Shown one piece after another: positions 17,282 to 59,705 of a stretch of 64,000 nucleotides of DNA. This DNA is from an uncultured Gelidibacter sp. (GTDB taxonomy: Bacteria > Bacteroidota > Bacteroidia > Flavobacteriales > Flavobacteriaceae), in contig NZ_CANMTE010000001.1 of the NCBI RefSeq assembly GCF_947500795.1, forward strand, positions 124,001 to 188,000, read 5' to 3'. Numbering within the stretch: the stretch's first letter is position 1; each line of letters starts with the position of its first letter. A program made the translations under genes and the position numbers. A model generated the notes under the pieces. That model was not told where the DNA came from. It did not search any database and saw nothing but the letters and a program-made list of their open reading frames with translations.

Positions 17282-18805
17282 ATGGCAATACTCGGAAATA
17301 TCATTAAGGGATTCATTGATGTCAAAGAATCTTTTTCTTCGGAACACAACCCTGTAAAGGAACAACAGGAAGTTTTAAAAAAACTGTTATCAAAAGCTAA
17401 AGACACGGCCTTTGGAAAGCATTATGACTTTGAATCGATTTTAAATTCAGAAAATCCTGCGGAAACTTTTGCCAACACAGTGCCTTATTTTGATTACAAT
17501 AAGATTCACGAAGAATGGTGGTATCGCTTACAGGATGGGGAGGAGGATGTGACCTGGCCTGGGCATCCAAAATATTTTGCTTTGAGTTCAGGAACTACCG
17601 GAAAATCGAGTAAACGTATACCTGTAACGGATGATATGATAGATGCCATCAAACAAACAGGTATCCAGCAAGTTTTTGCCTTGAGTAATTTTGATCTACC
17701 TGCAGATTTTTTCGAAAAGGAGATCATGATGCTAGGGAGTTCTACGGAGCTTAAGGAACACAATGACCATTTGGAAGGAGAAATTAGTGGAATTAGTGCT
17801 AGTAATATCCCGTTTTGGTTCAGATCGTATTACAAACCAGGAGAAGAGATTGCAAAAATTGACGATTGGGATGCGCGCGTACAGCGGATTGCCGAAAATG
17901 CAGAAAATTGGGACATTGGTGCCTTAAGTGGAATCCCATCGTGGATTGAACTCATGCTTCAAAAAGTCATCAGCCATCATAACTTGAACAACATTCATGA
18001 AATTTGGCCAAATCTTCAAGTGTATACGTCAGGTGGAGTTGCCTTTGGGCCTTATGAAAAAAGTTTTAATGCCTTATTAGGGCATCCCATAACGGTTATC
18101 GATACGTATTTGGCTTCAGAAGGATTTGTGGCATTTCAATCGAGACCAGAAACTAATGCTATGAAATTGGCTACTGATGAAGGGGTTTATTTCGAATTTG
18201 TCCCTTTTAAGCCAGAATATATCAATGAGGATGGATCTTTGGTTAAAGATGCGCCGTCAGTGACTTTGGAGAACGTAACAACTGATCAGGATTATGTGTT
18301 AATTATGAGTACCGTTAGTGGTGCTTGGCGCTATGAAATTGGCGATACGATTGCTTTTACAGATGTGGAACGCGCTGAAATTAAAATTACAGGACGCACC
18401 AAATTTTTCCTGAATACCGTCGGATCTCAGCTTTCTGTCAATAAAATGGACGATGCCATGAAGCATTTGGAGGAAGCCTTTTCAACAAAAATTCCAGAAT
18501 ATACGATTTGCGCCAAACGTTGTGAAGATGGCGAGTTTTACCATTGCTGGTATATTGGTTCGGAAGATCTTCTCAATGAAGAGGAGGTTGCCAATAGTAT
18601 AGATGAATTCTTAAAGGAAGCGAATAAAAATTACAAAGTTGCTCGAAGTAAAGCCTTAAAAGGTGTTAGGGTTAAGGCAGTTCAGCCCACAGTTTTCCAT
18701 GAATGGAGTGGTGCCAACAAGAAAAAAGGGGGACAGGTTAAAATGGAACGCGTAATGAACGAAGATAAATTTAAAGAGTGGGAGGACTTTGTTACTGAAC
18801 AATAG
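17282..18805 (+). CDS. GH3 auxin-responsive-promoter family protein (acyl-adenylating)
   Basis: The 507-residue protein has the GH3 layout: the nucleotide-binding block SSGTTGKSSKRIP (about residue 101), GALSGIPSWIELML, the TSGGVAFGPYEKSF block, YLASEGFVA, and GDTIAFTDVERAEIKITGR near the hinge. Plant GH3 enzymes join amino acids to jasmonate or auxin through an acyl-adenylate; bacterial substrates are unknown. The last 14 bases overlap the convergent M48-like gene tail to tail. Co-transcription with the Csp-like gene is possible, given the short gap. Confidence 0.88.
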   Translation: MAILGNIIKGFIDVKESFSSEHNPVKEQQEVLKKLLSKAKDTAFGKHYDFESILNSENPAETFANTVPYFDYNKIHEEWWYRLQDGEEDVTWPGHPKYFALSSGTTGKSSKRIPVTDDMIDAIKQTGIQQVFALSNFDLPADFFEKEIMMLGSSTELKEHNDHLEGEISGISASNIPFWFRSYYKPGEEIAKIDDWDARVQRIAENAENWDIGALSGIPSWIELMLQKVISHHNLNNIHEIWPNLQVYTSGGVAFGPYEKSFNALLGHPITVIDTYLASEGFVAFQSRPETNAMKLATDEGVYFEFVPFKPEYINEDGSLVKDAPSVTLENVTTDQDYVLIMSTVSGAWRYEIGDTIAFTDVERAEIKITGRTKFFLNTVGSQLSVNKMDDAMKHLEEAFSTKIPEYTICAKRCEDGEFYHCWYIGSEDLLNEEEVANSIDEFLKEANKNYKVARSKALKGVRVKAVQPTVFHEWSGANKKKGGQVKMERVMNEDKFKEWEDFVTEQ

Positions 18806-46236: not shown

Positions 46237-46998
46237 ATGACGGATTTTAAACCTATAATTAAGGTTCTTGAAGAGGCTTATGAAATTCCGCATTTGCAGG
46301 CTACCAGAAAAATATCTGCGTTGTTGCCTTACAATTACTATGAAACGGATAAACATTTCCCTGTGCTTTATTTACAGGATGGGCAAAATTTGTTTAACCC
46401 CATGTCTCCTTTTGGCGATTGGGCTATAGATCAGTCGTTGGCAAAACTGGCCGAGCAGGGCATGAGTGATATTATTGTCATTGCTATAGATCATGGAGAA
46501 GACGAGCGTATCACTGAGTATCTGCCGTATTACCATCCGAGATATGGTGACGGGAAAGGCAATTTCTATATTCAGTTTATCCTTGAAAAATTAATTCCTT
46601 ACATTAACAGTAATTATAGGACGCTGCCTGATTTTCAAAATACGGGGATTGGTGGGAGTTCTTTGGGAGGGCTGATTAGCCTACACGCGGGATTGTCAAA
46701 TCCGGGTGTTTTTGGTAAAATGATGATCTTTTCACCAAGTCTGTGGATTGCGAAAACAATTTTCAATCAAACGGAATCATTTCAGCCTTTACAGGAGTCT
46801 AAAATTTATTTGTATTCAGGAGGTAATGAAAGTGCAGAACATTTGCCAAATGCCCAAAAATTAGAAGCCATTTTTAGAGAAAAAATGGTTGAAAACCATG
46901 CGATAGATTTCCATTTTTCAATCAATGAAATAGGAAAGCATGCGGAAATTTATTGGAAACATGAGTTTCCAAAAGCTGTGAAATGGCTTTATTTTTAA
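46237..46998 (+). CDS. Esterase-D-like alpha/beta hydrolase
   Basis: The 253-residue protein has the esterase PF00756-like pattern: LPYNYYETDKHFPVLYLQDG, the nucleophile elbow GSSLG at 140-144 (Ser142) and a late His in EIGKHAEIYWKHEF. No signal peptide is visible. It is nine bases before the M17 aminopeptidase gene, so the two are probably co-transcribed. A similar fold is encoded at the far end of the ligase cluster (54697-55401). Confidence 0.85.
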   Translation: MTDFKPIIKVLEEAYEIPHLQATRKISALLPYNYYETDKHFPVLYLQDGQNLFNPMSPFGDWAIDQSLAKLAEQGMSDIIVIAIDHGEDERITEYLPYYHPRYGDGKGNFYIQFILEKLIPYINSNYRTLPDFQNTGIGGSSLGGLISLHAGLSNPGVFGKMMIFSPSLWIAKTIFNQTESFQPLQESKIYLYSGGNESAEHLPNAQKLEAIFREKMVENHAIDFHFSINEIGKHAEIYWKHEFPKAVKWLYF

Positions 46999-47007
46999 TT
47001 TGAAATT

Positions 47008-48420
47008 ATGATTTATAAACACATTACCCAACTCAATATCCATCAAGATGTCATTGTGCCATGTCGTAAAGGGCAATTGGACCATCTTAGTCAGTATACC
47101 ACTGTAAAAGACCCAGATTTTAATGGTGAGTTTTCAACCGTTCAAATGCTTTACGGAGCAGAAGACAATAGAGTTTATTTGTTAGGACTAGGAGAGGAGA
47201 AAGATGCCGTTAATATTGATGACGCCTTCAGAAAACTCAGCTTCGATTATAAAAAATATTGGAAAGAGCCTGTTCAAATTATAACAGAAGGTTTTTCTGA
47301 TGCTGAACTTCGCAAAGTGGTGATTGGTTTAGAAATGTCGGCTTATAATATAGGCGCTTTTAAATCTAAAAAGGAGCAGGAGGGGGCAATTACATTTGAA
47401 ATTGTGAATTCTCAAGACGTGACCGCTCTTCTCGAAGAATCTCAAGCGATTGGCGCTACTATTAATAGAATTAAAACTTTAGTAGATGCGCCGGCCAATC
47501 AAAAAACACCTGAGTTTTTAGGGCAGTGGGCACAGGCCTCTGCGCATGATGCTAATTACACGTGCACGGTGTTGCACAAAAAGGAACTTGAAGCACAAGG
47601 TTTTCACGCCGTTCTGGCCGTTGGGCAAGGCAGTGTGAATTCGCCAGTGGTTATTGTAACCCAATATATGCCGAAAAAAGGAATGGCCGTAGATATCGGT
47701 TTGGTAGGTAAAGGGATCACCTTTGATACCGGCGGTTTGTCAATTAAGCCTTCAACCAATCTTCATTATATGAAGAGCGATATGGGTGGCGCTGCTGTTG
47801 TACTAGGCGTTGTAGAACTGGTGGCAAAATTAAAACTCAACGTCAATGTTGTTGGGGTAGTCGCTTCAGCAGAAAATGCGGTGGACAGCAATAGTTACCG
47901 TCCGGGAGATGTTATTAACAGTTATTCTGGCAAATCTATTGAAATTATTGATACTGACGCTGAAGGCCGTTTGATCTTAGCAGATGGTTTGAATTATATT
48001 ATCAAGGAATTCCAACCCAAACAAGTCATTGATCTTGCTACTTTAACTGGGAGTGTAGTACAAACCTTAGGGTATTCGGCTGCGGGTATGTTTACTAACA
48101 ATACCGAGATGGCTCAGAATCTTTCAAAAATAGGTTTTGAAATAAATGAACGGGTGTGGCCGTTACCGCTGTTCTCTGACTTTGATAGTGATTTGCACAG
48201 TGACATTGCGGATCTTAGAAACTTTAGCGGGAAACCTATTGCAGGTGCAACTACCGCAGCAAAGTTTTTAGAAGCATTCACGGAGGAGCATCAAGCATGG
48301 ATGCATTTGGATATTGCGGGCGTATCGTTTGGCGACTCTAAGTATGCTAAAATGAAAAGTGCAAGTGGCTATGGCGTGCAATTAATGGTGAATTATATCA
48401 AATCTATTTCTGAGAACTAA
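47008..48420 (+). CDS. M17 leucyl aminopeptidase
   Basis: The 470-residue protein has the M17 metal-binding sites GKGITFDTGGLSIKPS (about residue 230), MKSDMGGAAVVLG and the signature DTDAEGRLILADGL (about 315). Enzymes of this type are hexameric di-metal peptidases that remove N-terminal residues from peptides, including Cys-Gly in some bacteria. The N-terminal domain is normal. Its position next to peptide-ligase genes suggests turnover of the product, which is inference. Confidence 0.93.
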   Translation: MIYKHITQLNIHQDVIVPCRKGQLDHLSQYTTVKDPDFNGEFSTVQMLYGAEDNRVYLLGLGEEKDAVNIDDAFRKLSFDYKKYWKEPVQIITEGFSDAELRKVVIGLEMSAYNIGAFKSKKEQEGAITFEIVNSQDVTALLEESQAIGATINRIKTLVDAPANQKTPEFLGQWAQASAHDANYTCTVLHKKELEAQGFHAVLAVGQGSVNSPVVIVTQYMPKKGMAVDIGLVGKGITFDTGGLSIKPSTNLHYMKSDMGGAAVVLGVVELVAKLKLNVNVVGVVASAENAVDSNSYRPGDVINSYSGKSIEIIDTDAEGRLILADGLNYIIKEFQPKQVIDLATLTGSVVQTLGYSAAGMFTNNTEMAQNLSKIGFEINERVWPLPLFSDFDSDLHSDIADLRNFSGKPIAGATTAAKFLEAFTEEHQAWMHLDIAGVSFGDSKYAKMKSASGYGVQLMVNYIKSISEN

Positions 48421-48452
48421 AGGTTTATTTTGTATTTTGTGTGTGAATTAAG

Positions 48453-48473
48453 CTGAAGTAACCGTTGCTTCAG
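48453..48473. promoter_or_regulatory. Near-perfect 21-base palindrome upstream of the first ATP-grasp gene
   Basis: CTGAAGTAAC and GTTGCTTCAG flank one central base, with one mismatch. It lies in the 115-base gap before the ATG at 48536 and could be an operator or a hairpin after the aminopeptidase gene. Confidence 0.35.
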
Positions 48474-48535
48474 TTAATGATTTTAATTAGGGCAGCTTAT
48501 TTAAAATCCTTTATCATTAAAAATCCCACCAAAAT

Positions 48536-49738
48536 ATGTCTACAAAACGACCACTCAATTTTCTATGTGTTACCACGTATCATAAAGGCGCCGATTTTAT
48601 AAAAAGCTGTAAAGCTGAAGGCAATAATGTGTATTTATTGACCAAAAAGAAATTGGAACACGAGGTGTGGCCGTGGGAAGCCATTGATGATGTGTTTTAC
48701 GTGGAAAATTGGAACCAAAGTGATGTCACCAAAGGTATCGCTTATAAATTCAGAACGATAAAATTCGATCGTTTTGTGGCCTTGGATGATTTTGATGTCG
48801 AAAAAGTAGCGCTTTTACGCGAACATTTCAGAATGCCCGGCATGGGCAGAACAACCTCTCATTATTTTAGGGATAAATTGGCCATGCGTATGAAAGCGCA
48901 GGAGGAAGGCGTCAATGTGCCCAAATTCACGGCGCTTTTTAATAATATCGACATTAATGCTTATGCGGATAATGTGAGTCCGCCGTGGTTCCTAAAACCA
49001 CGTTTGGAGGCCTCGGCAACCGGCATAAAGAAGATCAACAATCGGGAAGAACTTTGGCAAATTATTAATGCATTACAGGACGAACGCGATAATTATTTAA
49101 TTGAAAAGTTTGCCCCAGGCGATGTGTACCACGTAGACAGTCTGACGGTTGATGGAAAAGTCGTGTTTAGCAGAGTGAGTAAATATTTGGATACGCCGTT
49201 TGAAGTGGCACATGGCGGCGGAGTATTCCGATCTGCAACTTGTAAAATTGGCACTACAATCGAAAAGGCATTAACTAAAATGAATGCTGAGGTCATCACC
49301 GCTTTCGGAATGCAGTTTGGAGCGTCACACACTGAGTTTATCGAATCTAAAGACACTGGCGAATTGTTCTTTCTTGAAACATCTTCACGAGTAGGAGGCG
49401 CTAATTTAGCGGAAATGGTAGAGTTGGCATCCGGCATTAATCTTTGGGGAGAATGGGCGCGTATTGAAAGTGCCACCTTAAAAAAGGAAGTATATACCTT
49501 GCCTGAAGTCAAAAATCAGTATGCGGGAATTGTGGTGTCCTTAAGTAAATTTGAAACTCCGGATACGTCAAGTTTTGACGATCCTGAAATTGCATGGCGA
49601 ATGGATAAGAAATGGCACATTGGGATGATTGTAGTATCTGAAAATGCAGACCGGGTGATGGAGTTGTTAGATGACTATACCCAACGTATTGCGACCGATT
49701 TCCATGCGAGTATTCCTGCACCAGATAAAAGTTTGTGA
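48536..49738 (+). CDS. ATP-grasp ligase A (carbamoyl-phosphate-synthase/carnosine-synthase-like)
   Basis: The 400-residue protein has a pre-ATP-grasp N-terminal domain and an ATP-grasp fold. Key marks are FLKPRLEASATGIKKI (Lys near residue 157), the Glu pair in YLIEKFAPGD, and the metal site SHTEFIES with ELFFLETSSRVGG. Ligases of this type join a carboxylate to an amine using ATP through an acyl-phosphate. The substrate is unknown. It is the third plus-strand gene of the cluster and converges with the minus-strand ligase operon. Confidence 0.85.
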   Translation: MSTKRPLNFLCVTTYHKGADFIKSCKAEGNNVYLLTKKKLEHEVWPWEAIDDVFYVENWNQSDVTKGIAYKFRTIKFDRFVALDDFDVEKVALLREHFRMPGMGRTTSHYFRDKLAMRMKAQEEGVNVPKFTALFNNIDINAYADNVSPPWFLKPRLEASATGIKKINNREELWQIINALQDERDNYLIEKFAPGDVYHVDSLTVDGKVVFSRVSKYLDTPFEVAHGGGVFRSATCKIGTTIEKALTKMNAEVITAFGMQFGASHTEFIESKDTGELFFLETSSRVGGANLAEMVELASGINLWGEWARIESATLKKEVYTLPEVKNQYAGIVVSLSKFETPDTSSFDDPEIAWRMDKKWHIGMIVVSENADRVMELLDDYTQRIATDFHASIPAPDKSL

Positions 49739-49742
49739 TATA

Positions 49743-49845
49743 GAACGCTGACGACACTGATTGTTTTTGATATTCACTGATTTTTAAAAAGAAATTTCCG
49801 AGAATCCGCTTCACCCACCTGAACGGTCGGGCAGGTCAGTGTTCC
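49743..49845. repeat. Interspersed palindromic element, copy 1
   Basis: GAACGCTGAC and GTCAGTGTTC close the element at each end, with one G-T wobble, and an inner ACCTG / CAGGT hairpin lies in the right half. The first 28 bases are shared with the copy at 50407-50487, in the same orientation. It lies just after ATP-grasp gene A. Confidence 0.7.
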
Positions 49846-49863
49846 AATTAAAGGAACTTAAGA

Positions 49864-50160
49864 TTAAGAAATCCTATTTTCAAGATTTCGAGCAGAGTGA
49901 TGAACGGTCAAAATGTCTATACGTGATGGAGTGACAACTTTATAGATAATTCTATAATGGCCTTCAATTAATTGTCTTGTATGATGCTTGTTTATTTCAG
50001 GAACGATTTGTCCAGAATAAATTTGAGAATGTAAAATCTTCGTGCGTTTCTTGATTCTTATAATTTGAAGCTTTGCGTAGTTTTTAGAATCTTTTGAAAT
50101 GTAAACAAAAATAGCTCTTAAATCTGCTACAGATTGATGGGTCCAATTTATTTGAACCAT
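49864..50160 (-). CDS. RelE/ParE-family toxin
   Basis: The 98-residue protein has the RelE/ParE pattern IXWTHQSVADLRAIFVYISKD at the start and the terminal sequence IIYKVVTPSRIDILTVHHSARN. Such toxins block gyrase (ParE) or cut mRNA (RelE). The start overlaps the antitoxin gene by 13 bases. The N-terminal helix pair and basic residues suggest ParE-like, but this is not firm. Confidence 0.85.
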   Translation of the reverse strand: MVQINWTHQSVADLRAIFVYISKDSKNYAKLQIIRIKKRTKILHSQIYSGQIVPEINKHHTRQLIEGHYRIIYKVVTPSRIDILTVHHSARNLENRIS

Positions 50161-50330
50161 TTTTCTAGTTCAGTAGTTAAATCAGATTCAGAAACATAAT
50201 TCCCACTCTCAGACTGTTGGTACCCGCTCTCTATTTTTTCAATTAAAATTAATCGCTCAACGAGTTCATCAATAGTAAACTCTTCAGGTAAACTTTCGAT
50301 CTGTTCTTTTAATTTAGTCTTTGTAATCAT
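50148..50330 (-). CDS. Antitoxin of the RelE/ParE pair
   Basis: The 60-residue acidic protein (SLPEEFTIDELVERLILIEKIE, ending TTELEKWFK) precedes the toxin with a 13-base overlap, the typical order. The start is set at the ATG 50330; an upstream GTG or TTG is possible. No DNA-binding motif is obvious. It belongs to the small helical Bacteroidota antitoxins. Confidence 0.75.
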   Translation of the reverse strand: MITKTKLKEQIESLPEEFTIDELVERLILIEKIESGYQQSESGNYVSESDLTTELEKWFK

Positions 50331-50406
50331 CACACAAGATTGAAGTCTAATATACAAAATTATTGATTTGGTCTACTTAAAAAGAGAATTAACTTGGTAA
50401 TCCGAT

Positions 50407-50487
50407 GGAACGCTGACGACGCTGATTGTTTATGATTTATAAATAGATATCTGTGATAATCAGTTAAATCTGTGTCCTCAGTGTTCC
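50407..50487. repeat. Interspersed palindromic element, copy 2
   Basis: GGAACGCTGA and TCAGTGTTCC close the element, with the same G-T wobble as copy 1, and the interior contains the AATCAGTTAAATCTGTGT sequence that recurs in Bacteroidota spacers. Together with copy 1 it brackets the toxin-antitoxin pair. Confidence 0.7.
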
Positions 50488-50494
50488 AGCTATC

Positions 50495-51694
50495 TCAAGG
50501 CTCAAAAAAGCCTGTGCTGCCACCAACCCAAGTTTTATTCTTGTTGTATTTTACGCCCACCATTTCGCCTTTACTGAGTCGCATCAAATTACTGACAATT
50601 TGAGTTTGATTGGTTTTGCTATTATGGAGTAACATCATCCGAATCTCACACTTTGCCGGTTCGTCCATCGTTTGTATGATAGGCGCATAGGCTACTTTTT
50701 CTTGCAATAGGTAATTCGATTTATCTTTAACAGCATCAATCTTCGCTTGGTCAACATGAATTTCAACACCAGCACCCGCAAAAGAGTAGAGTGGTTTTAA
50801 AACATAATTTTCTAAATCAGTCGGGATGTTTTCGAGTTGGTCCAAATAATAGGATTTTGGAACATAGTCGCCTTTTAGTAATGGCATCGTGTATTTGCTA
50901 ATTCTGAAAAACCAATTGGGGTGGCCTATCCACTCAATATCCACTTCGTCTTTAAAATCAAATTCCCGGTCTAAATCTGGCCGTTGGTCCAATTCATCAA
51001 AAATGATACGGTTATAAATCTTTAAGACTCTAATTTCTTCGCCATTAGCATCTACATAAAATAATTGCTTTCCTCTTTTAATCAATTTGGAAATGCACAA
51101 CACTTTAATTCCTAATAACACTTCCGTGGCATAAAAGTCGATGGCTGTAGCCTGTTTTTCAGGCTCAATTTCTAAAAGAATCACTTGTTTTGGAGCGGTG
51201 TCTCCAACAATCTCGGTTCTTAACAATTCAAGATATTCCTCAGAAGTTAATCCGTTAAGGTGCTGTGAAAAATCATCAGGGATGCCGTCGTAATGTTTGC
51301 GATACATTCTGCCCATCAATTCCTGAAAAAAGTAAAGGGACGGAAATCCCTGCAATTCGATCAGTTTTGGGGTGAGTTGTCCTTTTTCATCTAAGCATAC
51401 CCCGAAATCCAATTGTAGAAATTTTGCTTGTGCATCTTCATAAGGCACTCTCATAGCCTCGTTAAAAAATGCACCATCAGTAAGGTCTTTAAAATTAGGC
51501 TGATTGATCACTTTCATGACGTCCTCACAAGCTTCTATCAACTGCTTTTTTAATGCTTTGGGAATAAAAACAGGCGTTTCAGCCACTTTAAATTGTGGCG
51601 TATAGTCGAATTGCGTATTGAGATCTGCCAGCATGCCAGCATATTTATCATCCGTAAATTGCGCGTTAAATGCTTGGCGTAATGAGGCAATCAT
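50495..51694 (-). CDS. ATP-grasp ligase B (glutathionylspermidine-synthase-like)
   Basis: The 399-residue protein has an N-terminal helical part and an ATP-grasp-like core with LKPLYSFAGAGVEIHV (Lys near residue 296), YLLQEKVAYAP, and EIRMMLLH with KTWVGGSTGFFEP at the end. The Ser/Gly-rich loop and C-terminal GGS differ from ligase A and suggest the circularly permuted or glutathionylspermidine-synthase-like branch. Substrate is unknown. It is the last gene of the minus-strand ligase operon, four bases from the amidotransferase gene. Confidence 0.75.
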   Translation of the reverse strand: MIASLRQAFNAQFTDDKYAGMLADLNTQFDYTPQFKVAETPVFIPKALKKQLIEACEDVMKVINQPNFKDLTDGAFFNEAMRVPYEDAQAKFLQLDFGVCLDEKGQLTPKLIELQGFPSLYFFQELMGRMYRKHYDGIPDDFSQHLNGLTSEEYLELLRTEIVGDTAPKQVILLEIEPEKQATAIDFYATEVLLGIKVLCISKLIKRGKQLFYVDANGEEIRVLKIYNRIIFDELDQRPDLDREFDFKDEVDIEWIGHPNWFFRISKYTMPLLKGDYVPKSYYLDQLENIPTDLENYVLKPLYSFAGAGVEIHVDQAKIDAVKDKSNYLLQEKVAYAPIIQTMDEPAKCEIRMMLLHNSKTNQTQIVSNLMRLSKGEMVGVKYNKNKTWVGGSTGFFEP

Positions 51695-51698
51695 AGTA

Positions 51699-52517
51699 TT
51701 ATGAGATTAGTTCTGGTGACAAGTGTTTAATAGCGCTTGCAATATAGTTGGGTAGAATGATTTTATGGGTTCTGATGATTTTATCCGGGTCGTCCATTTT
51801 ATCCATCATATCATCATATTTTTCTTCGCCAAAATTGGCAATGACTTTGTGCTTATTGGCATCGGCTAAAAAATGCGCACGCATCCCGATAGGATCTGCT
51901 TCGGGGTGGAATTGTGTACCTACAAATTCCTTAGAAAAACGTACCGCCATAATGGCGCGCTCATAACTGACGTGGCTGCGGATTTTTTCTAAACTTAAAA
52001 TAGAAGCGCCGTGCTCCTTAAAGACTTTCAGTCGGGGTTGTACCAATTGCCAATCCCGAGAATCTACAGCATAAAACGGATCGTCCAAACCTTCTAAAAG
52101 CGGGTCTTTTAGCCCTGCTTTAGTTTTGTGGATGGGCAAAACCCCAAAAGAAGTGCTGCGTCTTGGTCGCATTTCTCCTAATTTAAAATAATCGCATACC
52201 ACTTGAAAGGAGTAGCAAATGAAAAACATGTATTTTTTTTGATCTGTTGAACTCTTATTGAAATCCCACAATTCTTGAACCAAATTCAGATAGGGAATGC
52301 GCCAAGGTCCATCCTCAAGAGGACTGTCCGGTCCGCCACTCGAAATATAAATATCGTAAGAGCTGTCTGGTAATTCATCAGCACCTCTCACATTAAATAT
52401 GGCATAATCAACTTCATCTTCAAAGCCTCTCACAATATCAGCAATACAACGCAAGCCCTGATTGGGTTGGTTGTTGTTCATATCCAGTATGGCTATTTTT
52501 ATCTTTTCTTTAGGCAT
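51699..52517 (-). CDS. Class I glutamine amidotransferase-like protein
   Basis: The 272-residue protein has the class I fold with SGGPDSP (60-66), a nucleophile in FFICYSFQ (Cys101) and FHPEAD with His204 and Glu206, so the triad is intact. The elbow lacks the usual Gly on both sides (ICYSF in place of GxCxG). Such domains release ammonia from glutamine or cut gamma-glutamyl bonds. The position between a GCS2 and an ATP-grasp gene fits either an amide-forming or a gamma-glutamyl-removing step. Confidence 0.85.
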   Translation of the reverse strand: MPKEKIKIAILDMNNNQPNQGLRCIADIVRGFEDEVDYAIFNVRGADELPDSSYDIYISSGGPDSPLEDGPWRIPYLNLVQELWDFNKSSTDQKKYMFFICYSFQVVCDYFKLGEMRPRRSTSFGVLPIHKTKAGLKDPLLEGLDDPFYAVDSRDWQLVQPRLKVFKEHGASILSLEKIRSHVSYERAIMAVRFSKEFVGTQFHPEADPIGMRAHFLADANKHKVIANFGEEKYDDMMDKMDDPDKIIRTHKIILPNYIASAIKHLSPELIS

Positions 52518-52527
52518 GTATAGTTTT

Positions 52528-53622
52528 CTAAGTTCCTAAAACGGTCTGTGCAATAATATAATCGACCACCTTGGTCAAATCCTTGGTGTCTTCATAAACA
52601 GCAATTTGCCGATCAGCTCCCGTTCCGTTAACTAACATAGTCTTAATATGCTCTATTTCCTTACGCGATCCGAGCTCATCCACAACATCATCCACAAATT
52701 CAAGTAATTCGAGCATCAATTCTTTGGTAGGAACTTCAATTTCCTTTCCAAAATCAATCATTTTACCTTCAAGTCCGTATCTGCTGGCACGCCATTTATT
52801 TTCATTGATCAAGGCGCGGTGGTAGAGCATAAAATTAAGATTTTGAGTTCTTAATTTATAAAGTTTAGCAACTAGAGCTTGAATTAAGGCGGCAATGCTC
52901 AGGGTTTCTTCAATAGTCATTGGCACGTCGCAAATTCGCACTTCCACTGTTGGGAAAACTGGATGGATGCGGATGTCCCACCAAATCTTCTTCGGATTGT
53001 CAATACACTTCGTTTTGATCAGGATGTCAATATAGTGCTCATATTCGGCCACGGTTTGAAATACTCCAGGAATTCCTGTCCTGGGGAATTTGTCAAATAT
53101 CTTGGAACGAAACGATTTAAACCCTGTGTTACGGCCTTCCCAAAATGGTGAATTTGTTGACAACGCGTATAAATGCGGTAAAAAATAACGCATGGCATTG
53201 GTTAAATGCAAGGCCAATTGTTTGTCTTCAATACCAACATGTACGTGGAGTCCAAAAATTAAATTAGAACGGGCGGTATCTTGGAGTTCGTTGACAATCT
53301 CGTCATAACGAGGGTTTGGTGTCATCAATTGTGTTTCCCATTTGGTAAACGGATGGGTGCCAGCTGCGGCAATTTTAAATCCTAAAGTACCAGCAATATT
53401 GGAGATTGATTTTCGCAAATGGGTCAGTTCTCTCCGAGCTTCACTGATATCCTTACAAATATTGGTGCCCACCTCCACAACAGCCTGATGCATTTCAGCT
53501 TTTACCTGCTCATTTAGGAGCTTGGCAGCTTCCGATACAATTTGCTGATCATGGGAAATCAATTCTCGGGTTTTCGGACAGATGACTTGATATTCTTCTT
53601 CAATGCCTAATGTGAATTTCAT
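52528..53622 (-). CDS. GCS2/YbdK-family carboxylate-amine ligase
   Basis: The 364-residue protein begins with the GCS2 signature LGIEEEYQ (residues 5-12, metal-binding Glu cluster). It continues with GLHVHVGIED (about 134-143) and the WWDIRIHPVFPTVEVRICDVP block. YbdK has weak glutamate-cysteine ligase activity in vitro. A gamma-glutamyl or related amide is the probable product. The ATG at 53622 is chosen over an upstream TTG. It lies ten bases upstream of the amidotransferase gene. Confidence 0.9.
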   Translation of the reverse strand: MKFTLGIEEEYQVICPKTRELISHDQQIVSEAAKLLNEQVKAEMHQAVVEVGTNICKDISEARRELTHLRKSISNIAGTLGFKIAAAGTHPFTKWETQLMTPNPRYDEIVNELQDTARSNLIFGLHVHVGIEDKQLALHLTNAMRYFLPHLYALSTNSPFWEGRNTGFKSFRSKIFDKFPRTGIPGVFQTVAEYEHYIDILIKTKCIDNPKKIWWDIRIHPVFPTVEVRICDVPMTIEETLSIAALIQALVAKLYKLRTQNLNFMLYHRALINENKWRASRYGLEGKMIDFGKEIEVPTKELMLELLEFVDDVVDELGSRKEIEHIKTMLVNGTGADRQIAVYEDTKDLTKVVDYIIAQTVLGT

Positions 53623-53699
53623 AAAATACAAATGGTTTTAAATTACTTTTGTGGCATAAAATGCTGACCTTTCAAATCTATTGAAAGATTAAAATACAG

Positions 53700-54662
53700 T
53701 TATTTGTAAGTGGTTTTTTTACCGGTAATTTGGTCTTTAACAAAAGTTCCCCAAGTGAGATTCATCTTGTCTTTTTTATATTTCTTAGCCTTCGCAATGG
53801 CCATGTTGGCCGCGTTTTCAACAATCCATTCAAAATTGTCCTGACCTACTGAATTAATATCAGCATCTGGTGCTGGATTACAAAAATCTATGGCATAGGG
53901 GATGCCGTCTCTTACGGCAAATTCCACCGTGTTAAAATCGTAGCCTAAGGCTTTATTGAGTCGGATACAGTATTTTTTAATCAAATCTAATAGCTCTTGT
54001 TTTATCGGTGGCCCGTCAATGACATAGCGTAAATGATGCGGATTTCGCGGTTCATACTGCATAATATGCACGTTGTCCGTATCTAACACATAACATCTGA
54101 AATACTCGGTAAAATTGATTTCTTCTTGCAACATCATTACCAAGTTTTCAGTTTCGCCGTGTTTTTTCCACAAATCTTGCGAATTTTCAACACGATACAC
54201 ACTTTTCCAGCCGCCACCATCATGAGGTTTCATATAGGCAGGAAAGCCAATGGTATCGAACATATGTTCCCAAGCAAAAGGGAATTTCATGTTTCTAAAG
54301 GAGTTTTCATCAGTATCTGGCGGACGATGTGAAGACGGTAAAATGAATGTTTTTGGTACCGGCACACCCACTTTTTCTGCCAAGGCATTATTGAAGAATT
54401 TTTCGTCGGCACTCCACCAAAACGGATTGTTGATGACCGCAGTCCCAGAAATTGCCGCGTTCTTTAAATAAGCGCGATAAAATGGGACGTCCTGAGATAT
54501 TCTGTCAATTATTACCGCATAATCCGTAGGTTTTGCCTGTTCTACCATGTCGATAGAAACGGCTTCCGCCATAATATTTTTTACTTTCTTCTCATTAACA
54601 CGATCTATAAAAGCCTGTGGAAACGTGTTTTCTTTTCCGAATAGGATGCCAATTTTTTTCAT
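53700..54662 (-). CDS. ATP-grasp ligase C (RimK/D-Ala-D-Ala-ligase-like)
   Basis: The 320-residue protein starts MKKIGILFGKE and has an ATP-grasp fold with AYMKPHDGGGWKSVY (Lys near 158). Its metal site is DFNTVEFAVRDG and AIDFCNPAPDAD, in which the last acidic residue is Asp and Asn supports Mg. It differs in sequence from ligases A and B. Its substrate is unknown. It is 34 bases downstream of the esterase gene and 77 bases upstream of the GCS2 gene. An upstream GTG/TTG extension seems spurious. Confidence 0.85.
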   Translation of the reverse strand: MKKIGILFGKENTFPQAFIDRVNEKKVKNIMAEAVSIDMVEQAKPTDYAVIIDRISQDVPFYRAYLKNAAISGTAVINNPFWWSADEKFFNNALAEKVGVPVPKTFILPSSHRPPDTDENSFRNMKFPFAWEHMFDTIGFPAYMKPHDGGGWKSVYRVENSQDLWKKHGETENLVMMLQEEINFTEYFRCYVLDTDNVHIMQYEPRNPHHLRYVIDGPPIKQELLDLIKKYCIRLNKALGYDFNTVEFAVRDGIPYAIDFCNPAPDADINSVGQDNFEWIVENAANMAIAKAKKYKKDKMNLTWGTFVKDQITGKKTTYK

Positions 54663-54696
54663 ATGTATAAATTTTTGGTGGTGTATCTTAATTAGT

Positions 54697-55401
54697 TTAA
54701 AGTTTTGAAAGGTATTCTGGAAACATCTCGCGCCATAATGGCCAATCGTGTTTTGCCCACTTACGGACATCATACCAAAAGGGAATATTTTTATCGCGGA
54801 GTATTTGGGCCATTTTTTCGTTCGCTTCCAAACAAATATCCCATTCGCCGACGCCAAGGATGATCTTCATTTTCCATAAATCGGGATGGTTATTTCCGGG
54901 TAGAAAATCGATGGGATTATTGAAAAATACATTGTTATCATAATGACCGTCTACAAACGATTTGATATCAAAAGCGCCGCTCATACTATACATATGGCTT
55001 ACTTTTTCTGGATGCTTAAACGCGAAATTTGAGGCTTGATAGCCTCCAAAACTCGGTCCTGCTACCGCAACCTTAGGCAATCCTTTGTCCTGACAAATAG
55101 GGTTGACTATTTCATTCATAATAAACTGATCGTACCATTCGTGGTTTTTTGCACGTTGTGATGGATGGATTTTTTTATTGTACCAACTCAGTTCGTTAAT
55201 ACCATCAGGACAATAGATTTGGACTTTACCTTGCTCCACAAACCATCGGACAGATTCTACAAGTTTCATGTCTTTACATTCGTTGTGTTTCCCCATGGTC
55301 GTTGGAAATAGGATCACAGGATACCCTGCGTGTCCAAAAACGAGCATTTCTATATCCTTGCTAAGGGTTGGAGAGTACCATTTGTGATGTTGTTCTTTCA
55401 A
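54697..55401 (-). CDS. Esterase-D-like alpha/beta hydrolase, TTG start
   Basis: The 234-residue protein has a nucleophile elbow GPSFG at 115-119 (Ser117) and a C-terminal KHDWPLWREMFP with the catalytic His. It has no signal peptide. Start is TTG: the next upstream in-frame codons lead to TAA within 15 bases without ATG, and the conserved N terminus (WYSPTLSKDIEMLVFGHAG) begins close to it. It is the first gene of the ligase operon. It may act on an ester or thioester intermediate. Confidence 0.85.
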   Translation of the reverse strand: MKEQHHKWYSPTLSKDIEMLVFGHAGYPVILFPTTMGKHNECKDMKLVESVRWFVEQGKVQIYCPDGINELSWYNKKIHPSQRAKNHEWYDQFIMNEIVNPICQDKGLPKVAVAGPSFGGYQASNFAFKHPEKVSHMYSMSGAFDIKSFVDGHYDNNVFFNNPIDFLPGNNHPDLWKMKIILGVGEWDICLEANEKMAQILRDKNIPFWYDVRKWAKHDWPLWREMFPEYLSKL

Positions 55402-58532: not shown

Positions 58533-59705
58533 TTATTCATCAATCCTATTCTCATCAAATGCTGAAGGGAGTAATTTCGGGATAAACTTGATAAATAAAG
58601 GCAGTAAAAGCGCACCTCCTGGCAACATAAAGATGGCTAAACTTGGTATCGATTTAAAGATGTCCATCAATTGTTCTTGAACTTTTTTATGTTCAGCCGC
58701 TGTGAGTTCGCGTGTGGTGGACTTGGTTAAAAGCACCATCAATTCTTTACTCTCTTTTAATTCCTGTAAAAGTCTTTTGCTGTTTCTGCTAATCAGCTTC
58801 ATGACCATCTTGCTCGAGTTGTCATAAAAACTCTGCACAAAATTTTTAGATCCTAAGGCAGCAATTTTACTTTTATTTGAGCTATAAAAAAGGTCAATAT
58901 CCACAATAGACTGCGTTAATACCGCTAATTCCAGATCTAGATGTTCACAAAATTGAGCTAAAAACAGGTTCTCACTCTTGTCAATCACATTATCTGTCCA
59001 GGATGCCATGCAGGCAATATCAATGATATACCGTTTTTCTAAAGAGGTCTTGAGCGTGGCGATGGCTTCACCATAATCTAAAGGGCCGTTGGAATGGTAG
59101 CGTCTTGATAATTTAAAGAGCTTGGTTAAACTGTCGTCATACTTACTCTTTTGCAGTTTCGATTCAAAAACTTCTATGACAATAGTCTCAATAGACGTTT
59201 CAATGTCTTGTAGATATTTGTCTGAAACGGTGTTAGTGTCCAAATATTTCTGATACGCTAAGACATCTACAAATAAAAGGGCATTGGTAATGAAATAATT
59301 GAAATTCTTGGTAAACACGTTGTCATCAATATGTACGCGTTTCTCAATAAGGTCTTCCAATAGCGCCGCAGATTTCTTTTTGATTAACAGGGATTGAAAA
59401 ACGGAAGTTTTACTGACAGTAATGGCACTATAGAAATTGATAACCGTGTCTATGAATTTTTCTTCGGAGGGGTTTCGCTTATAAAAATAGAAAAACGCCA
59501 GTATTAAATTGACTTTACACAATTCTTCGTCGGTCAGGTCTTTCTTGGGAATAGCATTGCTGACAACGTCCACATTACTACCATAAATAAATCCACACTG
59601 CTTAAGTTCCTGATAAAAGCTTTCAAGAGTATTGTTCAGAAAAGTTTCATCTACAGAAACTTCCTTCAGTAATTTTTTAATCCAACCAGAGGCAGAGGGA
59701 TTCAT
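58533..59705 (-). CDS. LETM1-related biofilm-associated protein
   Basis: The 390-residue protein is mostly alpha-helical. The C-terminal 60 residues (FKSIPSLAIFMLPGGALLLPLFIKFIP) match the LETM1 membrane-segment motif. This type of protein in Flavobacteriia is called LETM1-related; a link to biofilm has been reported, though the mechanism is unknown. The stop abuts the LytTR stop (58532/58533), tail to tail. It is monocistronic. Confidence 0.8.
   Translation of the reverse strand: MNPSASGWIKKLLKEVSVDETFLNNTLESFYQELKQCGFIYGSNVDVVSNAIPKKDLTDEELCKVNLILAFFYFYKRNPSEEKFIDTVINFYSAITVSKTSVFQSLLIKKKSAALLEDLIEKRVHIDDNVFTKNFNYFITNALLFVDVLAYQKYLDTNTVSDKYLQDIETSIETIVIEVFESKLQKSKYDDSLTKLFKLSRRYHSNGPLDYGEAIATLKTSLEKRYIIDIACMASWTDNVIDKSENLFLAQFCEHLDLELAVLTQSIVDIDLFYSSNKSKIAALGSKNFVQSFYDNSSKMVMKLISRNSKRLLQELKESKELMVLLTKSTTRELTAAEHKKVQEQLMDIFKSIPSLAIFMLPGGALLLPLFIKFIPKLLPSAFDENRIDE

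What the first reader, a model, noticed from the sequence alone, without database searches (positions are those of the whole stretch)
46237..55401. Ligase-rich cluster: three ATP-grasp enzymes, GCS2/YbdK, class I amidotransferase, M17 peptidase and two esterases
Seen: in 9 kb there are three sequence-distinct ATP-grasp proteins (48536, 50495, 53700), a GCS2 ligase, an amidotransferase with an intact Cys-His-Glu triad, an aminopeptidase and two hydrolases. The minus-strand set (esterase, ligase C, GCS2, amidotransferase, ligase B) has gaps of 34, 77, 10 and 4 bases, so it is one operon. Known: each family makes or breaks amide, peptide or ester bonds. Inferred: a non-ribosomal route to a small peptide or gamma-glutamyl amide, with aminopeptidase and amidotransferase in trimming or recycling, product unknown. 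I recall comparative surveys of amidoligase neighbourhoods but cannot check if this exact set was described.
Basis: partly seen in the sequence, partly recalled or inferred. Interest (0 to 1): 0.8.

Follow-up and report, generated by a model that had tools for sequence, protein, structure and literature searches.

The report
Co-inherited peptide-ligase operon in Bacteroidia
Eight neighbouring genes in a flavobacterium encode a set of bond-making and bond-breaking enzymes, the key ones of which relatives keep or lack together, pointing to an unidentified small peptide-like compound made without ribosomes.

Summary
The window lies in Gelidibacter (Flavobacteriaceae). All eight genes are present, the minus-strand gaps are exactly as stated, and the catalytic residues checked are conserved. 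The set is not a chance pile. A core operon (Est2-GraspC-GCS2-GAT-GraspB) recurs across class Bacteroidia. In 395 genomes GraspB occurs in 67, GraspC in 68 and both in 65, including genomes where the two lie far apart. The second module (Est1-M17-GraspA) is rarer: GraspA occurs in 17 genomes, all GraspB-positive. In one relative genus all eight genes sit on one strand. GraspA is closest to L-amino-acid (dipeptide) ligases, GCS2 belongs to the YbdK family, and GraspB folds like glutathione synthetase and YgiC/glutathionylspermidine synthetase while the window's copy passes no Pfam or NCBIfam cut-off. GAT folds like plant gamma-glutamyl peptidase and stand-alone glutamine amidotransferases. Best reading: an NRPS-free pathway to a small, probably gamma-glutamyl, peptide or peptide amide, with GAT-GraspB as finishing pair and Est1-M17-GraspA as dipeptide-handling accessory. 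The product is unknown. A replacement thiol is unlikely, because the host also carries bshC of bacillithiol synthesis. A 2009 amidoligase survey, recalled but not held, may have listed part of this set.

The parts
46237..46998 (+). Est1: PF00756 esterase, first gene of accessory module
   Evidence: Pfam PF00756 102.9 bits; beside M17 and GraspA in 8 of 13 further GraspA loci (in L110 one ORF lies between)
47008..48420 (+). M17 leucyl-aminopeptidase-type metallopeptidase
   Evidence: PF00883 370.8 bits; K235, D240, K256, D258, D317, E319, R321 in 23 of 23 sequences
48536..49738 (+). GraspA: ATP-grasp of L-amino-acid-ligase type
   Evidence: ATP-grasp_4 32.4 bits, cut-off 27; best PDB matches L-amino acid ligases 4wd3 (E 2.4e-19) and 3vot (1e-10); 17 of 395 genomes at E<=1e-30, all GraspB-positive
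50495..51694 (-). GraspB: ATP-grasp with glutathione-synthetase/YgiC/GspS-like fold; passes no Pfam or NCBIfam cut-off
   Evidence: model pLDDT 89.8; Foldseek 5oet, 1m0w, 8fbz, 7uk8, 2io7 at E 7e-14 to 1.2e-12; hhalign to E. coli YgiC 8.3e-5 over 73 columns; 67 of 395 Bacteroidia genomes
51699..52517 (-). GAT: class-I glutamine-amidotransferase-like protein
   Evidence: PF00117 31.7 bits, cut-off 22.8; triad in 71 of 71 sequences; model pLDDT 91.3; Foldseek top GGP1 9k7i, then 3l7n, 1o1y, 8khs, MetA
52528..53622 (-). GCS2: YbdK-family carboxylate-amine ligase (ATG start 53622)
   Evidence: PF04107 221.5 bits, NF010039 535 bits against cut-off 371; 32% identical to E. coli YbdK; only PF04107 match in the genome
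53700..54662 (-). GraspC: RimK/Ddl-like ATP-grasp (ATG start 54662)
   Evidence: R2K_2 23.1 bits, below cut-off 26.2; RimK TIGR00768 34.7 bits, below cut-off; 68 of 395 genomes at E<=1e-20, 65 shared with GraspB
54697..55401 (-). Est2: alpha/beta hydrolase, first gene of the core operon (start codon uncertain, TTG at 55401)
   Evidence: PF00756 33.8 and PF00561 30.8 bits; S117, D188, H218 in 53 of 53 sequences

Best explanation
The locus is a two-module, NRPS-independent pathway for a small peptide-like amide. Core (Est2-GraspC-GCS2-GAT-GraspB): the YbdK-type ligase GCS2 and the RimK-like ligase GraspC build a short peptide, probably with a gamma-glutamyl link; GraspB (glutathione-synthetase/YgiC fold) then activates a carboxylate as acyl phosphate and joins it to an amine, and GAT, its most constant neighbour, most likely supplies glutamine-derived ammonia to GraspB, so that the two act as a glutamine-dependent amide synthase; Est2 releases or trims an ester. 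Accessory (Est1-M17-GraspA), only in some core-bearing genomes: the L-amino-acid-ligase-type GraspA makes a dipeptide building block and the M17 peptidase breaks such peptides down. Shown: families, folds, conserved catalytic residues, linkage and co-inheritance. Inferred: every substrate, the order of steps, the GAT-GraspB partnership and the physiological role. The confidence given is for the pathway reading as a whole; I put GAT as ammonia donor at about 0.4, as gamma-glutamyl peptidase at about 0.35, something else at 0.25.
For: Co-inheritance: GraspB 67, GraspC 68, both 65 of 395 Bacteroidia genomes (Fisher 4e-68; at genus level 41 of 41 GraspB genera also have GraspC), in several genomes with the genes on different contigs or far apart; GraspA 17 of 17 inside the GraspB set. 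Fisher ignores relatedness, and the three searches used different E limits (1e-3, 1e-20, 1e-30). Linkage: of 60 regions examined of the 67 GraspB genomes, same-strand GAT in 53, GCS2 in 42, GraspC in 41, Est2 in 35, all four in 31. All eight genes on one strand in G015 and G312 (L058, L076). Est1-M17-GraspA together in 8 of 13 further GraspA loci, away from the core. Folds: GraspB like glutathione synthetases, YgiC, GspS and Cp1B. Per PMC12568646 (passages read) Cp1B joins an acid to amino acids, and YgiC/YjfC are peptidylpolyamine synthetases. GAT like GGP1 and stand-alone GATases. GraspA like dipeptide ligases. Catalytic residues conserved.
Against: No substrate or product is known. GCS2 is missing near GraspB in 18 of 60 regions and all four partners in 7 of 60 (some regions end at a contig end), so the set is not obligatory locally. 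In G084 and G411 GAT sits with GraspC-GCS2 and not with GraspB, which weakens the GAT-GraspB pair. GAT's nearest fold includes a gamma-glutamyl peptidase. Its elbow is C-x-S in 71 of 71 where class-I GATases usually have C-x-G (recalled). Structural overlap of GraspB is loose (TMq 0.39-0.65, rmsd 6-13 for the 24 matches at E<=0.001), and sequence profiles find only YgiC, weakly (E 0.0083 and 0.019).
Confidence: 0.6

Rival explanations
1. Gamma-glutamyl on/off cycle: GCS2 puts gamma-glutamate on an amine or peptide, GraspC/GraspB extend it, and GAT is a gamma-glutamyl peptidase (like plant GGP1 or PuuD) that removes it; M17 then cleaves the dipeptide, as in glutathione turnover.
For: Best fold match of GAT is Arabidopsis gamma-glutamyl peptidase 1 (9k7i, E 7e-13); GraspB matches glutathione synthetase with bound gamma-glutamylcysteine (1m0w); GCS2 is a YbdK family member; GAT follows GCS2 in the operon, and in G084/G411 it stays with GCS2 without GraspB.
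Against: The same search ranks glutamine amidotransferases and MetA close behind (1o1y has the higher TM-score), so the fold does not separate the two. GAT is beside GraspB in 53 of 60 regions.
Confidence: 0.3
2. The product is a low-molecular-weight thiol that stands in for glutathione or bacillithiol.
For: YbdK-type ligase plus glutathione-synthetase fold plus M17 (Cys-Gly peptidase activity known for some M17 enzymes, recalled); no gshA (PF04262) in the genome and GshB-like hits only below cut-off.
Against: The own genome has bshC over the cut-off (474.7 v 265.8 bits), and 66 of 67 GraspB genomes are listed with a BshC match (my count; bshA and bshB not searched), so the product does not replace bacillithiol; bacillithiol derivatives are reported or predicted thiols of Bacteroidetes (PMC6282198, passages).
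Confidence: 0.08
3. Peptide tagging of a protein or build-up of an acidic polymer by the RimK-like GraspC, with GraspB and GCS2 as priming or capping enzymes.
For: GraspC resembles RimK/R2K ATP-grasps weakly; 37 of 70 GraspC sequences carry a C-terminal tail of 30 or more residues, 22 of them Lys/Arg- and Ala/Pro-rich, the longest 280 residues, as a holder for a polyanion might.
Against: The window's own GraspC has no such tail; among the 25 largest flank clusters shown I saw no target-protein gene that travels with the set.
Confidence: 0.12
4. Nitrogen-storage metabolism tied to cyanophycin.
For: In G015 and G312 the eight genes lie beside cyanophycin synthetase and cyanophycinase (both over cut-off in L058) and a beta-aspartyl-peptidase-like gene (below cut-off).
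Against: One genus only; the window's genome has no CphA over the cut-off; CphA is over cut-off in 155 of 395 genomes and, by my count, in 34 of 67 GraspB genomes (32 rows printed, G076 and G388 counted from E=0); p 0.02 without correction for relatedness.
Confidence: 0.04
5. Unrelated housekeeping genes that happen to be neighbours.
For: M17, PF00756 esterases and class-I GATases are common enzymes (recalled).
Against: 65 shared genomes for GraspB and GraspC and 17 of 17 for GraspA, linked or unlinked.
Confidence: 0.03

Closest known systems
Amidoligase gene neighbourhoods (Iyer et al. 2009, Mol Biosyst; recalled, not held in the library)
   Same: Linked ATP-grasp and GCS2-type ligases with peptidases and GATases, interpreted as non-ribosomal peptide synthesis (recalled)
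   Different: I could not check whether this exact eight-gene set was listed there
NAGGN osmolyte system (asparagine synthase AsnO, GNAT-family Ngg, glutamyl aminopeptidase; PMC8070244 passages)
   Same: Works alike in plan: peptide ligase, amidotransferase and aminopeptidase in one operon for a small peptide amide
   Different: Different families: a GNAT-family ligase and an asparagine-synthase-type amidotransferase there; three ATP-grasps, GCS2 and a class-I GATase here
Glutathione biosynthesis and turnover (GshA, GshB or eukaryotic GSS, GGP1, dipeptidase)
   Same: Fold of GraspB (GSS) and GAT (GGP1); YbdK-type GCS2
   Different: No PF04262 GshA in the genome; GraspB is not a GSS by sequence; host carries bshC
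YgiC/YjfC peptidylpolyamine synthetases and GspS
   Same: ATP-grasp fold; loop K-P-x-(F/Y)-S-x-x-G-x-x-V (hhalign); an E-x-(N/Q) motif, compared by eye only
   Different: Alignable over 73 columns only; GraspB has Q115 in 78 of 79 sequences (one gap) where YgiC seems to have N; different operon partners
Cp1B of the E-64 pathway (PMC12568646 passages)
   Same: ATP-grasp of the same fold acting in NRPS-free amide synthesis (Foldseek 9cjn, E 3e-10)
   Different: Fungal, substrate epoxysuccinate, no GATase partner described in the passages read

Membership tests
YbdK / GCS2 carboxylate-amine ligases (gene GCS2) | Curated family models over cut-off | tested here: met
   PF04107 221.5 v 21; TIGR02050 314.8 v 176.4; NF010039 535 v 371
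YbdK / GCS2 carboxylate-amine ligases (gene GCS2) | Gamma-glutamyl transfer to Cys or another amine | not testable with these tools
   needs enzyme assay
L-amino-acid ligases (GraspA) | Sequence similarity to solved LALs and ATP-grasp_4 | tested here: met
   4wd3 E 2.4e-19, 3vot 1e-10; PF13535 32.4 v 27; no NCBIfam model over its cut-off
L-amino-acid ligases (GraspA) | Dipeptide synthesis from free amino acids | not testable with these tools
   needs enzyme assay
GSP_synth PF03738 (GraspB) | Over the Pfam cut-off | tested here: not met
   window protein 16.5 v 29.3 bits; 6 of 43 sequences match at E<=0.01, best E 5.2e-5 (bits of that one not printed)
GSS/YgiC/GspS-type ATP-grasp fold (GraspB) | Same fold | tested here: met
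   24 Foldseek matches at E<=0.001, all of this group, best 7e-14, TMq 0.39-0.65; pLDDT 89.8
R2K ATP-grasp clade (GraspC) | R2K_2 model over cut-off | tested here: not met
   23.1 v 26.2 bits; 8 of 22 sequences match at E<=0.01
R2K ATP-grasp clade (GraspC) | Second Lys/Arg replaces the linker lysine (PMC4431377 passages) | tested here: inconclusive
   K/R153 in 22 of 22, but K88, which I take for the linker lysine, is also kept in 22 of 22
Class-I glutamine amidotransferase-like (GAT) | PF00117 and Cys-His-Glu triad | tested here: met
   31.7 v 22.8 bits; triad 71 of 71; no NCBIfam model over its cut-off
Gamma-glutamyl peptidase GGP1 (GAT) | Fold and specificity | tested here: inconclusive
   top fold match, but glutamine amidotransferases and MetA follow closely; specificity needs an assay
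M17 aminopeptidases | PF00883 and metal/catalytic residues | tested here: met
   370.8 v 25 bits; motifs in 23 sequences. NCBIfam leucyl-aminopeptidase models match below their cut-offs, best 394.9 v 432
NAGGN osmolyte system | GNAT-bearing ligase, asparagine-synthase-type amidotransferase | tested here: not met
   no such families among the eight proteins
Canonical glutathione pathway | GshA PF04262 and GshB TIGR01380 over cut-off | tested here: not met
   0 matches for PF04262; TIGR01380 best 206 v 299 bits

The most novel reading that the evidence does not exclude
About one in six Bacteroidia (67 of 395 sampled) carries a dedicated pathway, built round an ATP-grasp family (GraspB) that lacks a passing Pfam or NCBIfam model and an equally co-inherited ligase (GraspC), for an undescribed cytoplasmic peptide amide. 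It could be a compatible solute, cofactor, storage or signal compound made beside bacillithiol; in the lineages whose GraspC has a long lysine-rich tail, the product may be a polyanionic chain held by that tail.
Probability: 0.35. Interest if true: 0.75.

Novelty: new variant of a known kind. Interest (0 to 1): 0.52.

Why it matters
If right, a sizeable share of Bacteroidia makes a peptide metabolite that I could not find named, and the genes that make it are now delimited well enough to delete and assay. It would also give a first functional anchor to an ATP-grasp family without a passing Pfam or NCBIfam model, and show how a YbdK-type ligase, a family whose true substrates are unsettled (recalled), is used.

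Tried and rejected
Replacement thiol: tested by BshC distribution; the window's genome and 66 of 67 GraspB genomes have a BshC match, so rejected as a replacement. BshC is so common (364 of 395 with any match) that the test cannot show more.

Cyanophycin link: striking in G015/G312 but not general.

R2K membership of GraspC and GSP_synth membership of GraspB: below cut-offs.

Recurrent extra partners: clustering of 837 unlabelled ORFs from the flanks of 80 of 81 loci. I looked at the 25 largest clusters shown; the largest covers 11 of 80 loci (ABC-transporter-like by eye), and I judged none to travel with the core. A divergent esterase related to Est1 (EstX, mostly 23-33% identical to Est1; not scanned against Pfam) was the one repeated extra neighbour. 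Isoaspartyl-peptidase-like ORFs lie near six loci at varying distance; the two scanned are below the model's cut-off.

Mobile-element origin: no GraspB or GraspC in plasmids, no GraspC in viral contigs.

Literature: ten searches; in the rows shown (lists were capped, for example 10 of 53) no title or start of abstract described this set. The 2009 amidoligase paper itself is not held, so 'not described' is not claimed.

I considered mapping glutathione-synthetase substrate residues onto GraspB from memory; no solved glutathione synthetase came up in the profile searches, so no residue mapping is claimed.

Full report
WHAT IS THERE. The window lies at G000:C1:124001-188000. Named near relatives of GraspB are Gelidibacter species at 86-94% identity; the hit coordinates in the unnamed same-genus genome G001 equal those in G. 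salicanalis IC162 (L012), so the genus is taken to be Gelidibacter. With ATG starts at 54662 and 53622 the minus-strand gaps are 34, 77, 10 and 4 bases. Pfam confirms over cut-off esterase PF00756, M17, ATP-grasp_4, class-I GATase, GCS2 and an alpha/beta hydrolase; GraspC reaches only weak R2K_2 and RimK scores and GraspB no family at E<=0.001. I call the three ATP-grasps GraspA (48536), GraspB (50495) and GraspC (53700).

WHAT EACH PROTEIN IS. GraspA is closest to solved L-amino-acid (dipeptide) ligases, 4wd3 at 2.4e-19 and 3vot at 1e-10. GCS2 is a full YbdK-family protein, 32% identical to E. coli YbdK and the only PF04107 match in the genome. GraspB was modelled from 15 sequences with mean pLDDT 89.8. 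The 24 solved structures that match it at E<=0.001 are glutathione synthetases and glutathione-synthetase-like proteins, YgiC, YjfC, glutathionylspermidine synthetases, trypanothione synthetase and Cp1B (best E 7e-14, TMq 0.39-0.65). By sequence it touches only YgiC (E 0.0083; 0.019 with a larger profile; hhalign 8.3e-5 over 73 columns) and, below cut-off, PF03738 GSP_synth in 6 of 43 sequences. GAT was modelled with pLDDT 91.3. Its top structural matches are Arabidopsis gamma-glutamyl peptidase 1, SMU.1228c, several stand-alone glutamine amidotransferases (1o1y, 8khs, 7d54) and homoserine acyltransferase MetA, so its chemistry cannot be read off the fold. Catalytic positions are conserved in the sequences fetched: GAT Cys-His-Glu in 71 of 71, Est2 Ser-Asp-His in 53 of 53, M17 metal and arginine residues in 23 of 23, GraspB K300, E350 and R352 in 79 of 79 and E113 and Q115 in 78 of 79 with one gap, GraspC K210/G214-216/D324/N327 (ORF numbering of that call) in 71 of 71. 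These sets hold the window's own copy (L100) and a few genomes fetched twice (for example L020/L041, L032/L043). These look like working enzymes.

IS IT A UNIT? In 9 of 9 same-genus genomes, own included, GraspA, GraspB, GAT and GCS2 lie in one 4.2-kb stretch; of 11 more distant relatives only one had GraspB. Of the 21 loci found in genome contigs, nine show all eight genes in the same order (L012-L019, L022); several others end before the set could be seen whole. The profile of GraspB was then searched in 395 Bacteroidia genomes drawn evenly from the class: 67 positive, 41 of 197 genera. GraspC: 68 (G137, G178 and G303 are partial matches and G053 a distant one of 240 bits). Both: 65; GraspB alone G350 and G399; GraspC alone G053, G136, G303; by genus 41 of 41. 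GraspA: 17 genomes, all GraspB- and GraspC-positive. The Fisher values (4e-68, 1e-14) ignore shared ancestry, but in several genomes the two genes lie on different contigs or far apart (in G128 3.2 Mb as numbered on one contig), which linkage alone cannot explain.

ANATOMY. I fetched 60 of the 67 GraspB regions, some cut short by contig ends. On the strand of GraspB, GAT is present in 53, GCS2 in 42, GraspC in 41, Est2 in 35, all four in 31, none in 7 (score limits of my choosing). Many genomes have a second, divergent esterase ahead of Est2, here EstX, related to Est1 by profile and mostly 23-33% identical to it. Where the core is split, Est2/EstX-GraspC-GCS2 lies at one site and GAT-GraspB, or GraspB alone, at another; in G084 and G411 GAT stays with GraspC-GCS2. 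Est1-M17-GraspA is a second module: of 13 further GraspA loci, eight show all three together (L105-L107, L109-L112, L114), the others GraspA alone or with partners scattered. In G015 and G312 both modules form one run of eight genes on one strand (L058, L076), which ties the modules together independently of the window.

MECHANISM. Two ATP-grasps co-inherited almost without exception, a third found only with them, and a GCS2 ligase beside them in most regions, with no carrier-protein or NRPS domain among the eight proteins, point to stepwise amide formation on a small molecule. The structural kin of GraspB act late on peptides or acids: homoglutathione synthetase condenses gamma-glutamylcysteine with beta-alanine, YgiC and YjfC are described as peptidylpolyamine synthetases, and Cp1B joins epoxysuccinate to amino acids (PMC12568646, passages only). 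Since GAT is the most constant neighbour of GraspB, I read the pair as a glutamine-dependent amide synthase, with the gamma-glutamyl-peptidase role as the close rival. M17 with GraspA reads as dipeptide breakdown and formation. All substrates are inferred.

RESULTS AGAINST OR LIMITING. The product is not a replacement thiol: BshC is over the cut-off in the own genome, and in 335 of 395 genomes overall; 66 of the 67 GraspB genomes are listed with a match, G389 being the exception (my count). The own genome has no PF04262 GshA and only sub-cut-off GshB-like hits. The neighbourhood of G015/G312 holds cyanophycin synthetase, cyanophycinase and a beta-aspartyl-peptidase-like gene, but cyanophycin synthetase is in 34 of 67 GraspB genomes by my count against 155 of 395 overall, p 0.02 uncorrected, and not over the cut-off in the window's genome.

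AN ODD FEATURE. In 37 of 70 GraspC sequences with a delimited C terminus the protein carries a tail of at least 30 residues, in 22 rich in Lys/Arg and Ala/Pro, the longest 280 residues. The window's copy lacks it. GraspC also has D-F-x-N where most ATP-grasps have E-x-N (the usual motif is recalled; conservation).

KNOWN OR NEW. Linked amidoligases as a kind are known (2009 survey, recalled, not held). A ligase, amidotransferase and peptidase operon for a peptide amide exists in the NAGGN system (PMC8070244 passages), with different families. In the rows shown by ten searches of the held library I saw no paper describing this set; most subscription journals are not in it. I file it as a new variant of a known kind: the principle is known; the composition, the GraspB family without a passing model and the strict co-inheritance are what it adds.

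Noticed in passing
window 49864-50160 (-) and 50148-50357 (-): A ParE-type toxin gene (PF05016, 42.7 bits) with a 69-aa ORF overlapping its start, a likely antitoxin, sits between the two convergent modules; ParE was found in only some of the same-genus loci and matches in pieces in some.
   Followed up: partly
L045, L074, L079, L082, L086 and others (GraspC C termini): Long Lys/Ala/Pro-rich basic tails on GraspC in about half of the sequences, absent in the window.
   Followed up: partly
L058:10688-15362 and L076: Cyanophycin synthetase, cyanophycinase and a beta-aspartyl-peptidase-like gene directly beside the eight-gene run in one genus.
   Followed up: yes
L065:10548-13043: GraspA lies 12 bases from a glucose-1-phosphate adenylyltransferase gene (GlgC); glycogen-branching-enzyme-like ORFs lie near L058, L071 and L076 (by eye).
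   Followed up: no
window 17282-18805 (+): A GH3-family protein (PF03321 108 bits; GH3 members include acyl-amido synthetases, recalled), another possible amide-forming enzyme in the same window.
   Followed up: no
window 58533-59705 (-): A protein with a LETM1-like domain (PF07766, 34.8 bits) in a bacterium.
   Followed up: no
L096 (G411:C48): GraspB is in two pieces in this genome while GraspC, GCS2 and GAT look full-length at another site.
   Followed up: no
G000:C1:694693-695673 (L141): A GshB-like ATP-grasp below the curated cut-off (206 of 299 bits) in a genome without a PF04262 GshA match.
   Followed up: no
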